The notes beneath the pieces were generated by a model. That model had not been told where the DNA came from. It was given only the letters and a program-made list of their open reading frames with translations, and searched no databases. From the NCBI RefSeq assembly GCF_041261205.1, contig NZ_JBGCCH010000008.1:62001-126000 (forward strand): 64,000 nt of DNA. Direction: 5' to 3'. Position 1 is the stretch's first letter. Each line of letters begins with the position of its first letter. The position numbers and the translations under genes were made by a program. Origin of the DNA: Catenulispora sp. MAP5-51. GTDB taxonomy: Bacteria; Actinomycetota; Actinomycetes; Streptomycetales; Catenulisporaceae. Below, piece after piece: positions 25,284 through 34,253 of this stretch.

Positions 25284-28200
25284 ATGCGCATGATGATCAC
25301 GGTGGCCGGGCCCGGCAGCCGGTCCCACGACGTCGTCGTGGACGCCGACCCCGCGACGCCGGTCCGGGACGTCGTCAAAGGGCTGCTGGACGCCATCGGC
25401 GCCGACGCCGGCCACACCGCGGGCGACCCCGTCGGGGAGGAAGTGTTCCTCGACGGAGCCCGCGTGGACCTCTCCGGTCCGATCAGCGCCGCCGGGATCC
25501 ACGACGGCGCCGTCCTGTGGCTGGGCGCCCCCGGCGCGGCGGGGGAGTCCGGCCGGCCCGGCGGCCCGGGCTCCGGGCTGGTCACCGTCCGCGCCGTCGC
25601 CGGCCGGGACAGCGGCCGGGTCTGGTATCTCGGGGCCGGCGTGCACCAGATCGGCTCGGATCCGTCCTGCGCGGTCCGGCTCGGCTCGGACCAGCCCGGC
25701 GTCGTGGCGACGGTCCGGGTGAGCCTGGACGCCTCGGTCCGGATCCGTCCGGCCGTCCTGCGCGAGCCGCCGGAACTGGACCGGATCGCGCTGCCCGACG
25801 CCGAGACCACATGGCCGCAGGCCGCCTTGCTGCGGATCGGCGAGTCCCGCTACGAGCAGGCCGCGGTCCGCCAGCCCGACGCGATGATCGAGGTCTCGCC
25901 GGAGGGCGAGTGGCTCGACTACAACCGGCCGCCCCGGCTGCTGCCGCCGCCGCAGCGCACCTCCTTCCGGCTGCCCGCCGCGCCCGCGCCGGCCCGGCCC
26001 AGCCCGATGCCGTGGATCACCGCCCTGCTGCCGGCCGGGCTCGGCCTGGTGATGATGGCCGTGATGAAGAATCCCAGCTATCTGCTGATGGCCTTCTTCT
26101 CCCCGGTGATGATGGTCGGCAACTGGCTCAACGGCCGCCGGACCGGCAAGATCGGCCACCGCCGGATGCAGGCCGAGTACGTCGAGCAGCTGGCCGCCGC
26201 GGAGCAGGAGATCGCCCGGGCGCTGGAGTCCGAGCGCCTGCGGCTGCGGGCCTCCAGCCCCGACGCCGCCGAGCTGCTGCTGATCGCGACCGGACCGCGC
26301 AGCCGGCTGTGGGAGCGCCGCCGCAGCGATCCGGACCACCTGCTGGTCCGCGTCGGCCTGGCCGACCTGGACAGCGCGGTCGCCGTCGAACAGCTCGAGG
26401 GCCCGCAGCGCACATCGCAGCACCGCGTGGCGCACGACACCCCCGCGGCCTTCTCCATCGCGCGGGCCGGCGTGGTCGGTGTGGCAGGTCCCGGGGAGTG
26501 GCCGCGCCGGACGGCGCGCTGGCTGGTCGGCCAGATCGCGGTCCTGCAGAGCCCGCGCGACCTTCAGCTGTACGTGCTCACCGATCCCGCCGGCGACAGC
26601 CTGTGGGACTGGGCCACCTGGCTGCCGCACGCCCGGCCGAGCCTGGGCCAGCGGGCCCTGACCCTGGTCGGCGCGGACGCCGAGACGCTCAGCCACCGCG
26701 TCGCAGAGCTCGGCGATCTCATCGCGGCCCGGCAGCGCTCCCGGCTCGACGCCGGCACCGGCGCGGTCCAGGCCGATCCGGACGTCGTGGTCGTGCTCGA
26801 CGGCGCGCTGCGGCTGCGCGCGCTGCCCGGCGTGGTCACGGTCCTGCGCGAGGGCCCGGCGGTCGGCGTCTACAGCGTCTGCGTCGACGCCGACGAGCGC
26901 ACGCTGCCCGAGGAGTGCACCACGATCCTGGCCGGCGGCATCCCCGGCCGGCCGGTCGGCCTGCGCCAGCAGCGGGCCGCACTGATCGAGCCGATCCTCG
27001 CCGACGAGGTGAGTGCGGACTGGTATCCGGTGGTGGGCCGCCGCCTGGCGCCGCTGCGCGACGTCAGCGAGGTCGCCGGCGGCATGGCGCTGCCGGACGC
27101 GGCACGCCTGCTGGACCTGCTGGACCTGCGCGAGCCCAGCCCGGCCCTGATCAGCGGCCGCTGGCAGGCCGGCGGCCGCAGCACCAAGGCGGTCATCGGG
27201 GCCTCGCTGGACGGCCCCTTCGCCCTGGACCTGGTCGCGCACGGCCCGCACGGGCTGGTCGCCGGGACCACCGGCTCGGGCAAGTCAGAGTTCTTGCAGA
27301 CCTTGGTGGCCTCCCTGGCGGTGGCCAACCGGCCGGACGCGATGACCTTCGTGCTCGTGGACTACAAGGGCGGCGCGGCGTTCAAGGACTGTGTCGAGCT
27401 CCCGCACACCGTCGGCATGGTCACCGACCTGGACACCCACCTGGTCGAGCGGGCGCTCACCTCGTTGGGCGCGGAGCTGACGCACCGCGAGCGGCTGCTG
27501 GCCGCCGCCGGGGCGAAGGACCTGGAGGACTACCTCGACTACGCGACCAGGAACCCCGAGCTGGCACCGATTCCGCGGCTGCTGATCGTGATCGACGAGT
27601 TCGCCTCGATGGTCCGGGAGCTGCCGGACTTCGTCACCGGTCTGGTGAACGTCGCGCAGCGCGGCCGGTCCCTGGGCATCCACCTGATCCTGGCCACGCA
27701 GCGGCCCTCCGGCGTGGTCTCCGCGGAGATCCGTGCCAACACCAACCTGCGGGTGGCGCTGCGGGTCACCGACGCGGGGGAGAGCACCGACGTCATCGAC
27801 GCCCGCGACGCCGCGAACATCTCGCAGGCGCATCCCGGCCGCGCCTATGCCCGCCTCGGTCACAGTTCTCTGCTGCCGTTCCAGACCGGACGCGTCGGGG
27901 GACGGCGGCCGAGCCGGGACCGGGCCGTCGCCGCGCCCGCGCCGTTCCTGCGTCCGGTGGCCTGGCTCGACCTGGGCCGTCCGGCGCCCGAACGGCCCGC
28001 CTCGGCTGCCGAGACCGACGTGGTCACCGACTTGTCCGTACTGGTCTCGGCCCTGAAACAGGCCACTGATCTGCTCGGCCTGCCGCCGCAGCGCCGGCCC
28101 TGGCTGCCGCCGCTGCCGACTTCCACGGTCGTGGAGCTCGCCGCCGAGCCGACGGCCGGCGGGTCCGGCGGGTCCGGCGGGTCCGGGTCAGGCAAGTCCG

Positions 28201-29759
28201 GCGGGTTCGCCGAGCCGGTGTTCTCTTGGGCGCTCCAGGACCTCCCGGCGGCCCAGAAGCAGGAGCCGGTCACCATCGACCTGGCGACCTTCGGCCACTT
28301 CCACATCATCGGCGCGCCGCGCTCGGGCCGCTCGCAGGCCCTGCGGACCATCGCTGCCGCCGCGGCCTGCGCGGCCTCGGTGCCCGACCTGCACCTGTAC
28401 GGACTGGACTGCGGCAACGGCGCGCTGCTGCCGCTGAGCAAGTTCCCGCACTGCGGCGCGATCGTGCAGCGCTCAGAGACCGAGCGCGCCTCCCGGCTGC
28501 TCAAGCGGCTGCACGCCGAGGTGCTCAGCCGGCAGCGGGTGCTCGGCGAGGGCGGGTTCGCCGACGTCACCGAGCAGCGCCGGGCCGGCGCCCCGGGCGA
28601 GCGGCTGCCGCACATCATGCTGTTGCTGGACCGCTGGGAAGGCTTCATGGGCACGCTCAGCGAGCACGACAACGGCTCGCTGACCGACATCGTCCACACC
28701 CTGATGCGCGAGGGCGCCAGCGTCGGCGTGCACGTGGTGATCGCCGGCGACCGGAGCCTGATGTCCGGGCGTATCAGCTCCCTGACCGAGGACAAGCTGG
28801 TGCTGCGGCTGCCGGACCGCTCCGACTACTCCCTGGTCGGCCTGAACCCGCGCACCGTCGCGGAGAACCTGCCTCCCGGGCGCGGCTATCGTTCCGCGGG
28901 CGCGGTCGAGACGCAGGTCGCGCTGGTCGCCGCCGACCCCTCCGGGCCGGCGCAGGTCGCCGCGTTGCGCGATCTGGCGAGCCGTCTTGCCGAACGCGAG
29001 GCCGACGTCCCGAAGGCCCAACGCCCCGGCCGGATCGCGGTGCTGCCCGCGCAGCTGACGTTCGAGGAAGCCTGGGGCTACCTGGAGGAGGAACGGCAGC
29101 AGCCCTGGGCGCTGCTCGGCGTCGGCGGCGACGAACTGGAACCGGTGGGTGCCGCGCTGTTCGCCGACCGGCCGACGTTCCTGATCGCCGGCCCCTCCGG
29201 ATCCGGCCGCAGCACCGCGCTCGCGGTGATGGCCGAGTCGCTGCTGCGCACCGGCGCCGAGATCGTGATCGGCACGCCGAGCGTGACACCGCTGGCCGCG
29301 CTGGTCGGACGGCCGGGCGTGCGCGGCGTGGTGAGCTCGCCGGACCCGACCGAGGAGGAACTGGCCGCGCTGCTCGACCCGGGCGAGGGCCCCGTGGCGC
29401 TGATCCTCGACGACGGCGAGGCCTGGCGCGAGTGCCGGGCCCGCGAATGGCTGCGTGCCTACGTCCGCACCGGATCGGGCCGCAGACGCGGGCTGGTCCT
29501 GGGCGGCGAGATCGGCTCGGTGGCGATGGGCTTCTCCGGCTGGCAGGCCGAGGTGAAGAAGAACCGCCGCGGCGCGCTGCTGTCCCCGCCGGACCTGAGC
29601 AACGGCGACCTGGTCGGTATCCGGCTGACCCGCTCGCAGTTGGCACCGCGCGTCGTACCCGGAGCCGCGCTGGTCCACCTCGGCGACGGCGTCCTGATGA
29701 CCGCGCAGATTCCCATGGTGAAGGCAGAGCTTCCGACCCACAGACCCAAGGAGGGCTGA
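25284..29759 (+). CDS. FtsK/EssC-like type VII secretion ATPase with N-terminal FHA-type domain
   Basis: 1,491 residues. The first 75 or so form a small beta domain (MRMMITVAGPGSRSHDVVVD), then an FHA-like region (VWYLGAGVHQIGSDPSCAVRL, about 115-160). Two transmembrane helices lie at about 242-282. Three ATPase modules follow: the first is canonical (AGTTGSGKSEFL near 660; Walker B LLIVIDEFASM near 768; ATQRPSGVVS); the second is degenerate (GAPRSGRSQ near 1010); the third has AGPSGSGRSTAL near 1302. Domain order and FHA start resemble Firmicutes EssC more than mycobacterial EccC. GGAGG precedes the ATG. It should drive export of the WXG100 proteins beside it. Confidence 0.9.
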   Translation: MRMMITVAGPGSRSHDVVVDADPATPVRDVVKGLLDAIGADAGHTAGDPVGEEVFLDGARVDLSGPISAAGIHDGAVLWLGAPGAAGESGRPGGPGSGLVTVRAVAGRDSGRVWYLGAGVHQIGSDPSCAVRLGSDQPGVVATVRVSLDASVRIRPAVLREPPELDRIALPDAETTWPQAALLRIGESRYEQAAVRQPDAMIEVSPEGEWLDYNRPPRLLPPPQRTSFRLPAAPAPARPSPMPWITALLPAGLGLVMMAVMKNPSYLLMAFFSPVMMVGNWLNGRRTGKIGHRRMQAEYVEQLAAAEQEIARALESERLRLRASSPDAAELLLIATGPRSRLWERRRSDPDHLLVRVGLADLDSAVAVEQLEGPQRTSQHRVAHDTPAAFSIARAGVVGVAGPGEWPRRTARWLVGQIAVLQSPRDLQLYVLTDPAGDSLWDWATWLPHARPSLGQRALTLVGADAETLSHRVAELGDLIAARQRSRLDAGTGAVQADPDVVVVLDGALRLRALPGVVTVLREGPAVGVYSVCVDADERTLPEECTTILAGGIPGRPVGLRQQRAALIEPILADEVSADWYPVVGRRLAPLRDVSEVAGGMALPDAARLLDLLDLREPSPALISGRWQAGGRSTKAVIGASLDGPFALDLVAHGPHGLVAGTTGSGKSEFLQTLVASLAVANRPDAMTFVLVDYKGGAAFKDCVELPHTVGMVTDLDTHLVERALTSLGAELTHRERLLAAAGAKDLEDYLDYATRNPELAPIPRLLIVIDEFASMVRELPDFVTGLVNVAQRGRSLGIHLILATQRPSGVVSAEIRANTNLRVALRVTDAGESTDVIDARDAANISQAHPGRAYARLGHSSLLPFQTGRVGGRRPSRDRAVAAPAPFLRPVAWLDLGRPAPERPASAAETDVVTDLSVLVSALKQATDLLGLPPQRRPWLPPLPTSTVVELAAEPTAGGSGGSGGSGSGKSGGFAEPVFSWALQDLPAAQKQEPVTIDLATFGHFHIIGAPRSGRSQALRTIAAAAACAASVPDLHLYGLDCGNGALLPLSKFPHCGAIVQRSETERASRLLKRLHAEVLSRQRVLGEGGFADVTEQRRAGAPGERLPHIMLLLDRWEGFMGTLSEHDNGSLTDIVHTLMREGASVGVHVVIAGDRSLMSGRISSLTEDKLVLRLPDRSDYSLVGLNPRTVAENLPPGRGYRSAGAVETQVALVAADPSGPAQVAALRDLASRLAEREADVPKAQRPGRIAVLPAQLTFEEAWGYLEEERQQPWALLGVGGDELEPVGAALFADRPTFLIAGPSGSGRSTALAVMAESLLRTGAEIVIGTPSVTPLAALVGRPGVRGVVSSPDPTEEELAALLDPGEGPVALILDDGEAWRECRAREWLRAYVRTGSGRRRGLVLGGEIGSVAMGFSGWQAEVKKNRRGALLSPPDLSNGDLVGIRLTRSQLAPRVVPGAALVHLGDGVLMTAQIPMVKAELPTHRPKEG

Positions 29760-30043
29760 TGGCCGATCTCATCGTCCGCGACGACCTGGTGAGTCTGGTC
29801 AGCGACCTGAACTCGCTGATCGGCGAGTTCGAGGGCGCGCTGGACGTCCAGAACGAGGACAAGGGCCTGTGGGGCCAGCACAACGCCAACTCCTCGATGG
29901 GCGACTTCGCGGCCAACTGGCGCATCCACCGCGACGCGATGGTCAAGGACATGAAGACGCTGCGGGACTCGGTGGACAAGGTCAACCAGGCCTGGGCGCA
30001 GGGCGATCAGCAGCTGCGCGACAGCCTGAACACGAATTCGTGA
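29759..30043 (+). CDS. Second WXG100-type small protein
   Basis: 94 residues, two amphipathic helices (LVSLVSDLNSLIGEFEGAL and DAMVKDMKTLRDSVDKVNQA). The turn carries LWGQHN, a WG pair standing for the WxG signature. The ATG overlaps the ATPase stop by one base (TGATG), so it is translationally coupled to the motor. It probably forms the secreted heterodimer or chaperone partner with the 99-residue protein or the larger downstream protein. Confidence 0.8.
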   Translation: MADLIVRDDLVSLVSDLNSLIGEFEGALDVQNEDKGLWGQHNANSSMGDFAANWRIHRDAMVKDMKTLRDSVDKVNQAWAQGDQQLRDSLNTNS

Positions 30044-30059
30044 GCCGGCAGGAGGAGCT

Positions 30060-31514
30060 GTGAGCATCCGCAACCTCGGCAGCTGGGAAGCCCTGGGCCT
30101 GGACTCCGACCCGGTCCACGCCGACCCGGACGCGGTGGCCGAGGCCCAGACGCACTACCAGAACGTCGCCACCACCATCGACGACGCCGTGTCCCGCCTG
30201 CAGAAGGTGATGGACGACAACTCCGAAGGCCTCGTCGGCCAGTACATCGACGGCCTGCGCAAGAGCGCCGGCGACCTGCACGACAAGCTGCAGAAGGCCG
30301 GCGTCCGCTACCACGACGTCGCCGACCAGATCAAGATCTACGAGCAGCCGCTCCAGGACGGCCTGGACGAGACCGCCGGCGCGCTGAACGACGCGAACAC
30401 GGCCGCGGGGCAGCAGAAACAGGCCACCGGCATGCCCGACCCGCAGAAGGGGTCCGACGGCACCGTCTCGCCGCAGGAACAGCAGAAGGGCACGGACAAG
30501 ACCAACGCCGAGAACCAGGCGAACGACGCCCTGACCGCCGCCAAGAACCGGCTCAACAACGCGCTGGACGCCCTGAACACCGCCGGCAAACGGTTCGGCG
30601 ACGCCGTCAACAGCAAGAACTACGACGACGGGCTCAGCGATACCTGGAAAGACAAGATGGACGAGATCCTGGGCTGGTTCAGCAAGATCCTGGGCTACAT
30701 CGGCATGGCGCTCGGCGCGATCGCGCTGCTGATCCCGGGGCTGGACGTGGTCGTGCTGGCCGGGGTGGTGGTCGGCGCCGCGTCCCTGATCGTGAACTCG
30801 ATCCTGTACGCCGACGGCAAAGGCAGCGTCCTGGACGTCGTATTCGGCGCGGTGGGCCTGGGCCTGGGCTTCATCGGGGTCGGGGCCTCCCAGATCGCCA
30901 AGGGGCTCGCGAACGACGCCAAGACCCTGGCCGGCCTGGCCGAACACCCCGGCGCGCCGCAGCTCGGCTTCAGCGACACCGCCTTCGGCGAGGACTTCGG
31001 AGGCATCAACCTGCGGCCGATCGGCGGCGGCCCGGCCGCCGGGCCGAACCCGTCCACCATGAACGACCAGTGGCTGTTCGACCCGGCGAGCAACGCGGCC
31101 TCCAACTGGCAGCACCTGTCCGACTGGTACAACAACCCGGTCACCAACAGCGCCCTGGGCTGGCTCGGCGGCAAGCTCGGCGGGCTGCCCGGCCAGCTGG
31201 GCAACTGGGGCAGCAAGATCGGCACCCAGCCCGAGATCGGGTTCTGGGGCTCGGCCGGCCAGCAGCTCACCGACGCCTGGAACATGTGGAAGGGCCTTGG
31301 CTCCAACCCTCTGAAGACCATCGGCGACTGGGCCGGCGTGCTCGGCGGCTGGAGCGGCTACAAGGGGCTGTCCGGGATCCTGGGCGCCGTCGGCGGCAAG
31401 ATGAACCCGGCCTGGTACGTCTGGGGCGGCTTCAACGCGCTGTTCGGCCTGGGCATCGGCATCTCCTACACCGGCGGCCGGGAATCCGGTCTGATCCCGG
31501 CGGTGAACCCGTGA
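30060..31514 (+). CDS. Large ESX-type putative secreted/membrane protein
   Basis: 484 residues from a GTG preceded by AGGAGGAG. Residues 1-110 are helical like a WXG/LXG N-terminal targeting domain (HYQNVATTIDDAVSRLQKVM, KSAGDLHDKLQKAGVRYHDV). A Gln/Lys/Asp-rich linker follows. A hydrophobic block at about 210-270 holds two or three membrane-spanning segments (LGYIGMALGAIALLIPGLDV and VVVLAGVVVGAASLIVNSIL). The last 180 residues are rich in Gly, Trp and Asn (NWGSKIGTQPEIGFWG). No toxin domain recognised. It is probably the main substrate of the locus. Confidence 0.65.
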   Translation: MSIRNLGSWEALGLDSDPVHADPDAVAEAQTHYQNVATTIDDAVSRLQKVMDDNSEGLVGQYIDGLRKSAGDLHDKLQKAGVRYHDVADQIKIYEQPLQDGLDETAGALNDANTAAGQQKQATGMPDPQKGSDGTVSPQEQQKGTDKTNAENQANDALTAAKNRLNNALDALNTAGKRFGDAVNSKNYDDGLSDTWKDKMDEILGWFSKILGYIGMALGAIALLIPGLDVVVLAGVVVGAASLIVNSILYADGKGSVLDVVFGAVGLGLGFIGVGASQIAKGLANDAKTLAGLAEHPGAPQLGFSDTAFGEDFGGINLRPIGGGPAAGPNPSTMNDQWLFDPASNAASNWQHLSDWYNNPVTNSALGWLGGKLGGLPGQLGNWGSKIGTQPEIGFWGSAGQQLTDAWNMWKGLGSNPLKTIGDWAGVLGGWSGYKGLSGILGAVGGKMNPAWYVWGGFNALFGLGIGISYTGGRESGLIPAVNP

Positions 31515-31537
31515 CGAGCCGTGAGGAGGCACCGGTG

Positions 31538-32263
31538 ATGACAGCGGACGATGAATCCGCCGAGATCGCAGTGCCCTGGTTCTGGGGCCGAGTCCCGGAT
31601 CCGGGCGCCACCGACCAGGCCCGGCAGGCCTGGGCCGACCGCGTGGTGGAGATGTTCGCCGAGTGGACCCGAGACGGCTGGGACGAGGACTTCCGCACCA
31701 GCTGGATCACCGAGGGCGGCCTGCCCGAGGACTTCCCCTTCACCGCCGAGAACGTCGGCCGCGGCATCGCGCGCTGGCTCACCGACCGGGCCGCCACCCT
31801 GCCGCCCTGGCAGCGCATGGCCTGGGGGACCGCCTTCGTGCAGGGCTGGCCGCGCTGGTCGCCGGTGCCGGTGGTGGTCGAGTACCGCGCCCCGGCCGCA
31901 GACGACCCGATCTATCTGATGGAGCTGGTCGGCGCCGGCTCTTCCCCCGCCGCTTCTTCCCCGGACATCGACTACGGCCGGCAGATCGAGTACATCACCA
32001 CGCCCTACGGCGACGGGCTCCGGGTGCTCAGCGTGCACAGCACCCCCGACCGCTTCGCCTACGGCCGCCTGGACGCCGCGATGCGCCTGGACTGGCCGGC
32101 CGCCGAGGGCCGGCCCCCGGCGCGGGTCGACGTGCTGCTCACCACGCGCGTGGTGGACCTGCAGCTGCTGGCGCTGATCGGGCCCGGCGTGGAAAAGCTG
32201 ATGCAGCAGATCGCCGAGCACCCGCAACCGATCGCACCGGCCCGCCAAGGGGTGAACCGATGA
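31538..32263 (+). CDS. Hypothetical protein of the type VII-like locus (A)
   Basis: 241 residues. Trp-rich start (VPWFWGRVPDPGATDQARQA) and helical body (IARWLTDRAATLPPWQRMAWG), then a beta-rich half (YGRQIEYITTPYGDGLRVLS). No signal peptide or membrane span, so cytoplasmic. GAGGAGG eight bases before the ATG decides the start; in-frame GTGs lie just upstream. It overlaps the next gene by 4 bases. No family recognised; placement at the end of the cluster suggests an accessory or chaperone role. Confidence 0.65.
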   Translation: MTADDESAEIAVPWFWGRVPDPGATDQARQAWADRVVEMFAEWTRDGWDEDFRTSWITEGGLPEDFPFTAENVGRGIARWLTDRAATLPPWQRMAWGTAFVQGWPRWSPVPVVVEYRAPAADDPIYLMELVGAGSSPAASSPDIDYGRQIEYITTPYGDGLRVLSVHSTPDRFAYGRLDAAMRLDWPAAEGRPPARVDVLLTTRVVDLQLLALIGPGVEKLMQQIAEHPQPIAPARQGVNR

Positions 32264-32964
32264 TCGACCTCGAACTGGTACTCCCGGCCGGCTGGGCCGT
32301 CCTGCCCACCGCCCCGGACACCGAGCGCGTCCGCAAGTGGGCCATCGACCGCGTCATCACCCGCGCCCTGCCGGCAAGCCTGCCCCGCGACCGTGCCGAA
32401 CCCTGGCGCCGCGAACTGCGCAAGCAGCTGACCACCGCCACCGACGAGGCCGGCCGCAACGGCGCGCGCTGGGTGGTCCTGCCGCTGCGGGAGTTCAACG
32501 GGACCCGCATCCCGGGTTCCCTGCTGCTGACCATCCTGGAGGACCAGGACCCCCAGGACCCCGAGCGCCTGCTGGCCTCGATCCTGGACGACGCCGGTCC
32601 GAACGGCTCCTGCCTCGACGTCGGCGGCGCTCCGGCGGCGCGCATCTCGGCGGTGATCCACCAGCAGATGTACGGCAAACAGACCGCCGGCGTGCGCGTC
32701 TCGTACTACCTGCCGCACCCCGAGCGTCCCGGCGTCTGGGGCCTGCTGACGTTCACCGTGCTGGCCGGTGCCGACGCCGACACCGACTCCCCGCTGGTCC
32801 GTGGCGTCGTGTTCCTGTTCGACACCATCATCTCCACACTGCGCTGGGTCGAGCGCACCGCGGCGCCGACCCAGGACGAGGTGCTGGCGATGGTGACGGC
32901 GACAGTTGCGGAGATTGAAGGAGCACAGATTGAAGGAGCGGTCGCCGAGCCACAAGCCCTGTGA
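32260..32964 (+). CDS. Hypothetical protein of the type VII-like locus (B)
   Basis: 234 residues. Starts MIDLELVLPAGWAVLPTAPD with an Arg-rich helix (PRDRAEPWRRELRKQL), then alternating strands (RWVVLPLREFNGTRIPGSLL, VRVSYYLPHPERPGVWGLLT). The conserved-looking core could be a small alpha/beta partner fold. An ATGA overlap couples it to the previous gene, so the pair is likely made in equal amounts. It is the last gene before the palindromic element. Not recognised. Confidence 0.65.
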   Translation: MIDLELVLPAGWAVLPTAPDTERVRKWAIDRVITRALPASLPRDRAEPWRRELRKQLTTATDEAGRNGARWVVLPLREFNGTRIPGSLLLTILEDQDPQDPERLLASILDDAGPNGSCLDVGGAPAARISAVIHQQMYGKQTAGVRVSYYLPHPERPGVWGLLTFTVLAGADADTDSPLVRGVVFLFDTIISTLRWVERTAAPTQDEVLAMVTATVAEIEGAQIEGAVAEPQAL

Positions 32965-32993: not shown

Positions 32994-33001
32994 TCATTAT
33001 C
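32994..33001. repeat. Left target-site duplication
   Basis: TCATTATC, identical and in the same orientation as 34059-34066, directly abutting the outer G of the left terminal repeat of the element at 33002. Confidence 0.85.
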
Positions 33002-34058
33002 GGCGCCCCTGACTCATGTGCGGTGGGTGGGTGTGGCTGGTTGCGGTTTGTTTGTGGGCTGATAGTCACAGGCGTTTCTTGACGGCTTCGCGCATGGTTT
33101 ACGGGATCCGTTGGGTGGCGCGGTTCGGGGGTGGCGCTGGTTTCGCGGGGCGGCGGTGGTTTGGGTAGGTGGTCGGGTCTACTGCGAAAATCAAAGGCAC
33201 GAGCAAGGGCACGAGCAAGGTCAAGGGCTTACAGGCGCCTCCGGCGGCGCCTGCGCGGCGAGCGGCCTCGCTCCGGGGGGTGGGGGCCGCGTTGTCGGGC
33301 GGCGGTTGTTGCTTGTGGTCGCCTTTGTCCCGGATTCCCCGCCGCTTCAGCGCCCGGAGGGAACCATCCCGGCCTGGGCGGTATCAAGCCGGATCACTGT
33401 TGCTGTGGCCCAGTATCGGCGGCTTGACACCGCCCAGTCCGGGATCGTTGTGCAAGCACCGCCGAAGCGACGGGGAATCCGGGACAACCCCGGCCTGTGG
33501 GAAGGATTCCCGCACCACACGCACGCACCGCCTGGCCGCCGCTGTGCCTCACGGAGTGGACCCGGTCCACACCACAGACCGGGGTTGTCCCGGATTCCCC
33601 GTCGCTTCGGCGGGCGAAGCCAAGCAGGCCGGGCCGGTGGTATCAAGTCGCTGATACTAAACCACGGCGGCGGCGATCCGGCTTGATACCACCGGACCGG
33701 TCTGCTTCCGTTAGGCGACGATGCGACGGGGAATCCGGGACAGAGGCGACCACAAGCAACGTCCGCCGGCAGCCAGCAGCGCGGCTCCCCACTCCCCGGA
33801 GCGAGGCCGCTCGCCGCGCAGGCGCCGCCGGAGGCGCTCTTGACTGTCGCCTCTGACTGTCGCAGTTGATCTTGACTGTCGCAGTAGAACCGACCACCTA
33901 CCCACACCACCGCCGCCCTGCGAAACCAGCGCCACCACCGACCCGCGCCACCAACGGATCCCGCCAACCCTGCGCGAAGCCGTCAAAAAACGCCTGTAAA
34001 CCACCCACCCCAGCCGCACCCACACGAGGAACTGACCCACACAGAGGTCAGGAGCGCC
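33002..34058. mobile_element. 1,057-bp palindromic non-autonomous element (MITE-like) with TIRs and 8-bp target duplication
   Basis: The ends are inverted repeats: GGCGCCCCTGAC at 33002-33013 and GTCAGGAGCGCC at 34047-34058 (one mismatch in 12). Homology continues inward on both arms, for example GGCGTTT-TTGACGGCTTCGCGCA, GGCGCTGGTTTCGC-GGGCGG and a 42-base GC-rich block at 33236-33277 mirrored at 33796-33837. The two arms of about 500 bases are inverted copies with the centre near 33530. Perfect 8-bp duplications flank it. No transposase or other credible gene is inside; its ORFs are mirror images of each other. The family is not identified; an 8-bp duplication is seen in ISL3, IS256 and ISAs1 relatives. 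Confidence 0.85.
33326..33742. repeat. Four alternating copies of a 27-nt box around two stem-loops
   Basis: The box TGTCCCGGATTCCCCG-(C/T)CGCTTC-GCG occurs at 33326-33352 (+), 33460-33486 (-), 33586-33612 (+) and 33716-33742 (-). Between the first pair lies an 18-bp inverted repeat (33374-33391 with 33420-33437, one mismatch, core GGTATCAAGCC). Between the second pair lies a perfect 14-bp one (33634-33647 with 33682-33695, GGTATCAAG core). The middle boxes extend into a further 20-bp inverted repeat (GGGACAACCCCGG-CTGTGG, 33481-33500 with 33573-33592). Confidence 0.9.
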
Positions 34059-34066
34059 TCATTATC
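34059..34066. repeat. Right target-site duplication
   Basis: TCATTATC, abutting the outer C of the right terminal repeat. Its last two bases form part of the stop codon of the relic gene read on the minus strand. Confidence 0.85.
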
Positions 34067-34253
34067 AGGGCGCAAAGATCTCGGTCGTCCACTGCTTCTC
34101 GTCGGTGCCGAGCAGCGTGATGCGGTCGAGCAGCCCCGCGGCGCCGCCCAGCTCCTTGTACGTCCGGAAGTCGCCCGAGGAAATCACACAGACGTCGAGC
34201 CCTCCCGACGTCCTGCACTCGGCCCCCTTGGACTGGTGGACGTTGCCAGATCC
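34065..34253 (-). pseudogene. C-terminal remnant of an unidentified gene next to the element
   Basis: An open frame of 62 codons without a start codon, following an in-frame TAG at 34256-34254. It reads VCVISSGDFRTYKELGGAAG, then LLDRITLLGTDEKQWTTEIF, ending AP and TGA at 34067-34065. Composition and flow look like genuine protein, but the N-terminal part is missing. The stop region (TGATAATGA) is the target duplicated by the insertion. No family recognised. Confidence 0.5.

What the first reader, a model, noticed from the sequence alone, without database searches (positions are those of the whole stretch)
32994..34066. Gene-less 1,057-bp palindromic element with TIRs and a perfect 8-bp target duplication
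Seen: identical TCATTATC on both sides, terminal inverted repeats GGCGC(C/T)CCTGAC, and inverted homology between two arms of about 500 bases whose centre falls near 33530, exactly midway between the ends. No transposase or other credible gene is inside. Known: 8-bp duplications occur in ISL3, IS256 and ISAs1 relatives. Inferred: a non-autonomous (MITE-like) element, unusually large and built as a near-complete inverted repeat, which may be a new family.
Basis: partly seen in the sequence, partly recalled or inferred. Interest (0 to 1): 0.82.

Follow-up and report, generated by a model that had tools for sequence, protein, structure and literature searches.

The report
Kilobase palindromic jumping element, ISL3-type
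This gene-less stretch is one copy of a large family of mobile DNA, about 1,000 bases long and folded almost entirely as a mirror image, that a soil actinobacterium and its close relatives carry in many copies and that was most likely moved by the transposase of an ordinary insertion sequence.

Summary
Window 33002-34058 is a 1,057-bp non-coding element with inverted ends, an exact 8-bp target duplication (TCATTATC) and arms that pair along nearly its whole length. It is one of at least 49 copies in its genome. The family's core motif was found in 5 of 245 genomes of the order, all in one genus (Catenulispora, by inference). Ten of 33 copies keep an exact 8-bp duplication (0.4% in mismatched pairs). 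Related species have the neighbouring genes without the element. The mobiliser is most likely an ISL3-family transposase: one relative has a complete 1,403-bp ISL3 element with nearly the same 24-bp ends and an 8-bp duplication, and the window's genome keeps a remnant of it. An IS256 transposase inside one copy is a later insertion. I read this as template switching or recombination between arms. New variant of a known kind (MITE-like).

The parts
32994..33001 (.). left copy of 8-bp target site duplication TCATTATC
   Evidence: read directly; exact match to 34059-34066
33002..34058 (.). whole palindromic non-autonomous element, 1,057 bp
33002..33025 (+). left terminal inverted repeat
   Evidence: first 12 bases as in the motif; 4 mismatches to the 24-position end motif, so not itself among the 57 hits
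33068..33285 (+). outer left arm, inverted against 33787-33997
   Evidence: inverted repeats I5, I1, I3 (91%, 91%, 98%)
33325..33487 (+). nested hairpin H1 in left arm
   Evidence: inverted repeats I7, I8
33459..33500 (+). left inner stem flanking the loop, 98% complementary to 33572-33613
   Evidence: inverted repeat I6
33501..33571 (.). 71-nt central loop, found in both orientations among copies
33572..33613 (-). right inner stem
   Evidence: inverted repeat I6
33586..33742 (-). nested hairpin H2 in right arm
   Evidence: inverted repeats I9, I10
33787..33997 (-). outer right arm
   Evidence: inverted repeats I5, I1, I3
34035..34058 (-). right terminal inverted repeat
   Evidence: exact match to the 24-position end motif (C8:96035-96058)
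34059..34066 (.). right copy of target site duplication

Best explanation
The element is a non-autonomous, MITE-like DNA transposon of a genus-wide family. An ISL3-family transposase supplied by a separate, full-length insertion sequence acts on its roughly 24-bp ends and inserts it at octamers with an A+T core (NNWWWWNN), which are duplicated (matching ends and duplications are shown; binding and catalysis are inferred). The inner 900 bp or so are a nested palindrome unrelated to the transposase gene. During replication or recombination the two arms act as templates for each other; this flips the loop and sometimes the whole core, and tends to keep part of the arms alike (both orientations are shown, the likeness only for the outer arm segment; the mechanism is inferred). 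In the window's genome the partner was found only as a broken remnant, so this copy is probably immobile now unless another ISL3 transposase can act on it.
For: Copies: 39 places plus 10 partial ones. Duplications: 10 of 33 copies exact and 13 of 33 with at most one mismatch, against 0.4% and 1.1% of 1,056 mismatched pairs. Orthologous loci without the element in G008, G009 and G002. Partner: L126 in G004, 1,403 bp, ends GGCGCCCCTGACTTATCCGTGGGT and GGCGCCTCTGACTCATCCGTGGGT (2 and 4 mismatches to the motif), duplication CATTTTTC; its protein passes the cut-offs of Pfam PF01610, PF13542 and PF14690 and NCBIfam NF033550. A remnant of the same transposase (PF01610, E 6e-28) directly abuts an end with 1 mismatch to the motif in the window's own genome. 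Of 31 more distant transposase loci from named genomes, 8 show ends of a like plan (mostly GGCTC...GTGGGT) with 8-bp AT-rich duplications. Loop orientation 14:12 with 1 ambiguous of 27 copies in G000, 8:3 with 1 ambiguous of 12 in G006, 0:2 in G008; core against ends 16:5 with 6 ambiguous of 27. Outer arm segment: identity within copies 0.890 against 0.852 +/- 0.007 when arms are re-paired, 0 of 5,000 (25 copies). Template switching that homogenises arms and inverts spacers is described, in yeast, in PMC8604942 (abstract and passages seen).
Against: No intact copy of the matching ISL3 element was found in the window's own genome, and nothing close to it in G006 or G008, which also hold the palindrome; draft assemblies could hide one. 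IS and palindrome share only their ends. Twenty of the 33 end pairs have two or more mismatches in the duplication; some are wrongly called ends (e.g. L007, L116, L118), others may be old copies. The end motif is in clear excess over its reversed control in G000 (57:1), G006 (36:1), G001 (21:0) and G004 (20:3), but not in G008 (5:4). At the empty loci only G008 gives a sharp right edge (34065); in G009 and G002 the alignment starts at 34050, nine bases inside the element, which I take for chance extension, and the left intergenic stretch has diverged everywhere. Over the first 490 bp of each arm, ends and hairpins included, within-copy identity is below the median between copies in 25 of 28 copies; of three segments tested, only the outermost shows a within-copy excess. 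No transposition has been observed.
Confidence: 0.87

Rival explanations
1. The parent is an IS256-family element: one copy (L057) has an IS256 transposase between the arms and an 8-bp duplication outside, so the palindromes would be its deletion derivatives.
For: L057 is 2,541 bp with an exact outer duplication and a 451-aa transposase with PF00872 between the arms; IS256 elements also make 8-bp duplications.
Against: The IS256 piece is a 1,525-bp IS with its own ends and its own 7-of-8-bp duplication (GCGTGGTG/GTGTGGTG) inside the loop. Of 12 loci of relatives in G012, 11 show the same kind of ends (GTGTAAG) with 8-bp duplications, and none of the 12 shows a trace of the arms. Only one full copy was found in the window's genome, against at least 49 palindromes.
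Confidence: 0.04
2. The element is mobilised by a different ISL3 transposase, such as L128 in the window's own genome (ends GGCTCTTCGC...GTGGGT), rather than by the L126 type.
For: L128 has an open 417-aa frame, lies in the same genome, is 54% identical to L126, and its ends share GGC at the start and GTGGGT at the end of the motif.
Against: Its ends have 6 and 7 mismatches to the 24-position motif, against 2 and 4 for L126 and 1 for the remnant L107. Four weaker ISL3 matches in the same genome were not followed.
Confidence: 0.12
3. A long structured RNA or regulatory palindrome kept by the host at gene ends and spread by duplication, not by transposition.
For: Very stable fold; the window copy lies about 38 bp past the stop codon of one gene and at the end of a remnant gene on the other strand.
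Against: 8-bp duplications at scattered sites, absence from orthologous loci, no Rfam match reaching the curated threshold.
Confidence: 0.04

Closest known systems
ISL3 family insertion sequences (complete example here: L126 in G004, by inference C. acidiphila)
   Same: 24-bp ends of nearly the same sequence, 8-bp AT-rich target duplications
   Different: the palindrome has no transposase gene and shares only the ends with the IS
Bacterial MITEs (reviews PMC2229807 and PMC10969869, passages seen)
   Same: no transposase, terminal inverted repeats, target duplications, many copies, strongly base-paired
   Different: those summarised in PMC2229807 are about 100-200 bp; this one is about 1,000 bp, nested, with both orientations of its centre among the copies
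TIMEs, Tn3-derived miniature elements (PMC4133298, passages seen)
   Same: trans-mobilised elements defined by the ends of a known transposon family, inserting in AT-rich DNA
   Different: Tn3 ends and 5-6 bp duplications; no full-length palindrome is mentioned in the passages seen
PATEs of Haloquadratum (PMC3119063, passages seen)
   Same: transposase-free repeats with palindromes
   Different: PATEs lack terminal inverted repeats and target duplications and are related to IS605 types; both features are present here
Foldback elements of eukaryotes (recalled, not tested)
   Same: long inverted-repeat arms around a small centre
   Different: different transposase families and hosts

Membership tests
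MITE (non-autonomous, trans-mobilised element) | terminal inverted repeats shared with an autonomous transposon | tested here: met
   ends of L126 match the 24-position motif with 2 and 4 mismatches; the end abutting the remnant in L107 with 1
MITE (non-autonomous, trans-mobilised element) | no transposase gene inside | tested here: met
   five ORFs tested are not conserved among copies; the IS256 gene in L057 is a nested insertion
MITE (non-autonomous, trans-mobilised element) | target site duplication of the partner's length | tested here: met
   8 bp, exact in 10 of 33 copies and in L126
MITE (non-autonomous, trans-mobilised element) | small size (100-200 bp in PMC2229807; approx. 30-300 bp in PMC4133298) | tested here: not met
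   950-1,125 bp in the 15 copies without inserts (of 19 rows, L057 and L058 have inserts, L224 is the IS and L037 I take for a chance pair); so MITE-like, not a MITE in the strict sense
ISL3-mobilised | transposase with ISL3 domains in the partner | tested here: met
   PF01610, PF13542, PF14690 and NF033550 over their cut-offs
ISL3-mobilised | partner transposase acts on the ends of the palindrome | not testable with these tools
   needs a transposition assay
IS256 derivative | ends of the IS256 type seen in relatives (GTGTAAG near the end) | tested here: not met
   outer ends are GGCGCC...GTGGGT; the IS256-type ends lie inside the loop of one copy
   no ISAs1 search was made
PATE | no terminal inverted repeats and no target duplication | tested here: not met
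   both present

The most novel reading that the evidence does not exclude
The palindrome is not a passive passenger: the element moves or multiplies through a folded-back intermediate in which one arm is copied from the other, so that each round of movement can flip the centre and renew part of the arms. This would make it a foldback-type transposon of bacteria that borrows ISL3 ends. (Odds lowered from 0.08 to 0.07 on recheck, because arm likeness is shown for one segment only.)
Probability: 0.07. Interest if true: 0.75.

Novelty: new variant of a known kind. Interest (0 to 1): 0.45.

Why it matters
It adds a kilobase-sized, nearly fully palindromic class to the bacterial elements that borrow a transposase, here of ISL3 type. 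It also gives a natural series of dozens of related inverted repeats in one genome in which spacer inversion and arm conversion can be counted. Long palindromes are regarded as a threat to genome stability (abstract openings of PMC7999016 and PMC3315005 in the listing), so a genome with about 50 of them is a good test case. A practical point: at least 11 of the 87 contigs of this draft have a match within 200 bp of an end (positions).

Tried and rejected
Rejected: IS256 as parent. Rejected: PATE-like element. Rejected: structured RNA family (one search gave only sub-threshold microRNA matches, none in three copies). Expected but not found: a simple master-copy pattern in which left arms resemble left arms more than right arms; in the outer segment same-side and cross-side identities are equal (0.851 and 0.849). 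Against homogenisation of the whole arm: inner stems within copies 0.936 against 0.947 between; segment next to the hairpin 0.906 against 0.914 (same side) and 0.901 (cross side); whole-arm comparison lower within than the median between in 25 of 28 copies. Only the outermost of the three segments showed an excess, and that one was then tested by permutation, so it was picked after looking. Tried without result: an insertion shared by two species with the loop in opposite orientation, which would have shown inversion in place; three pairs of loci share a flank, but the insertion points were not shown to be the same. An exact scan of genome contigs for the core pattern gave 0 stretches, but near relatives may be left out of that collection, so the genus restriction rests (245 genomes drawn from a larger group). 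Literature: ten searches listed no report of this family that I recognised; only open-licence papers are held there, and ISfinder could not be searched.

Full report
What is there. Window 33002-34058 is flanked by an exact duplication TCATTATC and ends in GGCGCCCCTGAC / GGCGCTCCTGAC in inverted order. The two halves pair along the length: six inverted-repeat pairs of 42-81 nt with 78-98% complementarity, plus shorter ones. On folding with RNA parameters, 836 of 860 paired bases sit near mirror positions, at -841 against -564 +/- 19 kcal/mol for 10 control stretches of the window. Each arm contains a hairpin of its own (33325-33487, 33586-33742), and a 71-nt loop is at the centre. Of the ORFs that overlap it, five of 109-206 aa were tested; each is open over 90% of its length in only 0 to 3 of 25 other copies, so I take the element as non-coding.

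Copies. A search of its own genome (10.9 Mb, 87 contigs) gave 89 matches on both strands, which I merged by hand to 39 places; 40 of 249 first-look candidates were scored, so this is a lower bound. A search for a 24-position end motif with up to 3 mismatches gave 57 hits against 1 for the reversed control. Of 20 stretches fetched around such ends, 10 held further homologous DNA at places not yet counted, so at least 49 copies or pieces. Eleven contigs have a match within 200 bp of an end, as expected for a repeat that breaks short-read assemblies. It is not an assembly artefact, because the single-contig genome G004 also holds the family.

Distribution. All 9 other genomes of the genus have matches, 3 to 46 each; of 31 genomes outside the genus, 8 have one or two short matches with E no better than 1e-6. 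A core pattern with up to 2 mismatches was found in 5 of 245 genomes of the order, all of this genus and 5 of its 10 members; the other five members have only the weaker matches. The end motif is in excess over its reversed control in G006 (36:1), G001 (21:0) and G004 (20:3) but not in G008 (5:4). G004 has 10,467,782 bp, the published length of Catenulispora acidiphila (PMC3035231, passages including the abstract), so the genus is Catenulispora by inference.

Target duplications. With ends chosen by motif alone, 33 copies from four genomes had both ends called. Ten have identical 8-bp flanks and 13 differ at one position at most; among 1,056 mismatched pairings the shares are 0.4% and 1.1%. 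Some of the 33 are wrong pairings (L007, L116, L118), which lowers the share; G008 gave no copy with both ends. The 13 duplicated octamers are 64% A+T against 30% in the loci, with A or T in nearly all of positions 3-6.

Empty sites. In G008, G009 and G002 the gene left of the element is followed directly by sequence homologous to window 34066-34219 or 34230, without the element. In G008 this is the 3' end of an open 398-aa frame on the other strand, and homology resumes at 34065, inside the last two bases of the duplication. In G009 and G002 the alignment begins at 34050, nine bases inside the element end, which I take for chance extension. The empty loci read GAGTCAGGG or GAATCAGGG where the window has TCATTATCAGGG, so the octamer itself is not seen there; these are different species with flanks 69-90% identical, and the left intergenic stretch has diverged. 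In G001 and G006 the distance between the left gene and the next conserved stretch is only about 140 and 55 bp and holds no element.

Mobiliser. One end in the window's own genome (L107) runs straight into the C-terminal part of an ISL3 transposase (PF01610, E 6e-28). A search of 10 genomes for PF01610 found a complete one in G004 (L126): 1,403 bp, a 425-aa protein over the ISL3 cut-offs of Pfam and NCBIfam, ends differing from the motif at 2 and 4 of 24 positions, and the duplication CATTTTTC. G002 has pieces of it 58-93% identical on four contigs; three of its loci examined carry ends of this type. Of 31 more distant transposase loci from named genomes, 8 gave paired ends of a like plan, mostly GGCTC...GTGGGT, with 8-bp AT-rich duplications; 20 gave no pair, and 3 gave a pair that is out of register or that I take for chance. 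IS and palindrome share only the ends. Apart from the remnant, the window's genome has one open ISL3 relative (L128, 54% identical to L126) whose ends have 6 and 7 mismatches to the motif, and four weaker PF01610 matches that I did not follow.

The IS256 red herring. Copy L057 carries a 451-aa IS256 transposase between its arms. It is a separate 1,525-bp IS with its own ends and a 7-of-8-bp duplication in the loop; 11 of 12 loci of relatives in G012 have such ends with 8-bp duplications, and none of the 12 has arms.

Invertible centre. Using the two hairpins as landmarks, the loop has the window's orientation in 14 and the opposite one in 12 of 27 copies examined in G000 (1 ambiguous), 8 and 3 of 12 in G006 (1 ambiguous), 0 and 2 of 2 in G008 (first seen). 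Relative to the ends, the core is in the window's order in 16, reversed in 5 and unclear in 6 of 27.

Arm likeness. In the outer arm segment (130-290 bp outward of the hairpin core), the two arms of a copy are 0.890 identical, against 0.852 +/- 0.007 when left and right arms are re-paired at random, 0 of 5,000 permutations reaching the value (25 copies); left-left and left-right comparisons between copies are equal (0.851, 0.849). This does not hold for the whole arm: the inner stems and the segment next to the hairpin show no excess, and over 490 bp of arm, where ends and hairpins differ by side, within-copy identity is below the between-copy median in 25 of 28 copies. Template switching between arms is known to homogenise arms and invert spacers (PMC8604942, a yeast study, abstract and passages seen). 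Recombination between the arms would serve as well; the data do not separate the two.

Verdict. An ISL3-type, non-autonomous element of MITE character, too large for the usual size definition, nested-palindromic and with its centre in both orientations. Shown: copies, ends, duplications, loci without the element, near-identical ends with an ISL3 IS, both orientations. Inferred: transposase action in trans, the mechanism of inversion, and that the family is stranded in the window's genome.

Noticed in passing
34066-34240: Only the 3' end of a gene remains here. G008 has at this locus an open 398-aa frame without Pfam match and, beyond it, an intact SigE-family ECF sigma factor gene, both missing at this place in the window; G009 and G002 have like spacing, but their genes were not checked.
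   Followed up: partly
L058 loop (about 990-1240), L060, L061: Three further copies have roughly 200-240 bp inserted in the loop; the insert in L058 has GTGTAAG-type ends like IS256 elements (read by eye), so the loop is hit repeatedly by other elements.
   Followed up: partly
L217, L218, L234, L236: Four G006 copies are inserted at the same octamer CATTTTGT with different left flanks; all four right flanks start TTAG, and L234 and L236 (L218 more loosely) look alike by eye further on, which hints at a preferred or repeated target.
   Followed up: no
L243 (G001:C722:29995-30275): A 281-bp short element with two ends of the same type: a size class closer to ordinary MITEs; its flanking octamers differ at 3 positions as called.
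   Followed up: no
L106, L109, L114: Solo ends of the same type; L106 and L109 share 62 bp and L109 and L114 45 bp from the end inward, then unrelated DNA: perhaps worn remnants of a smaller relative.
   Followed up: no
25284-32964: Genes left of the element look like a type VII (ESX-like) secretion locus; recalled from the look of the translated ORFs, not tested.
   Followed up: no
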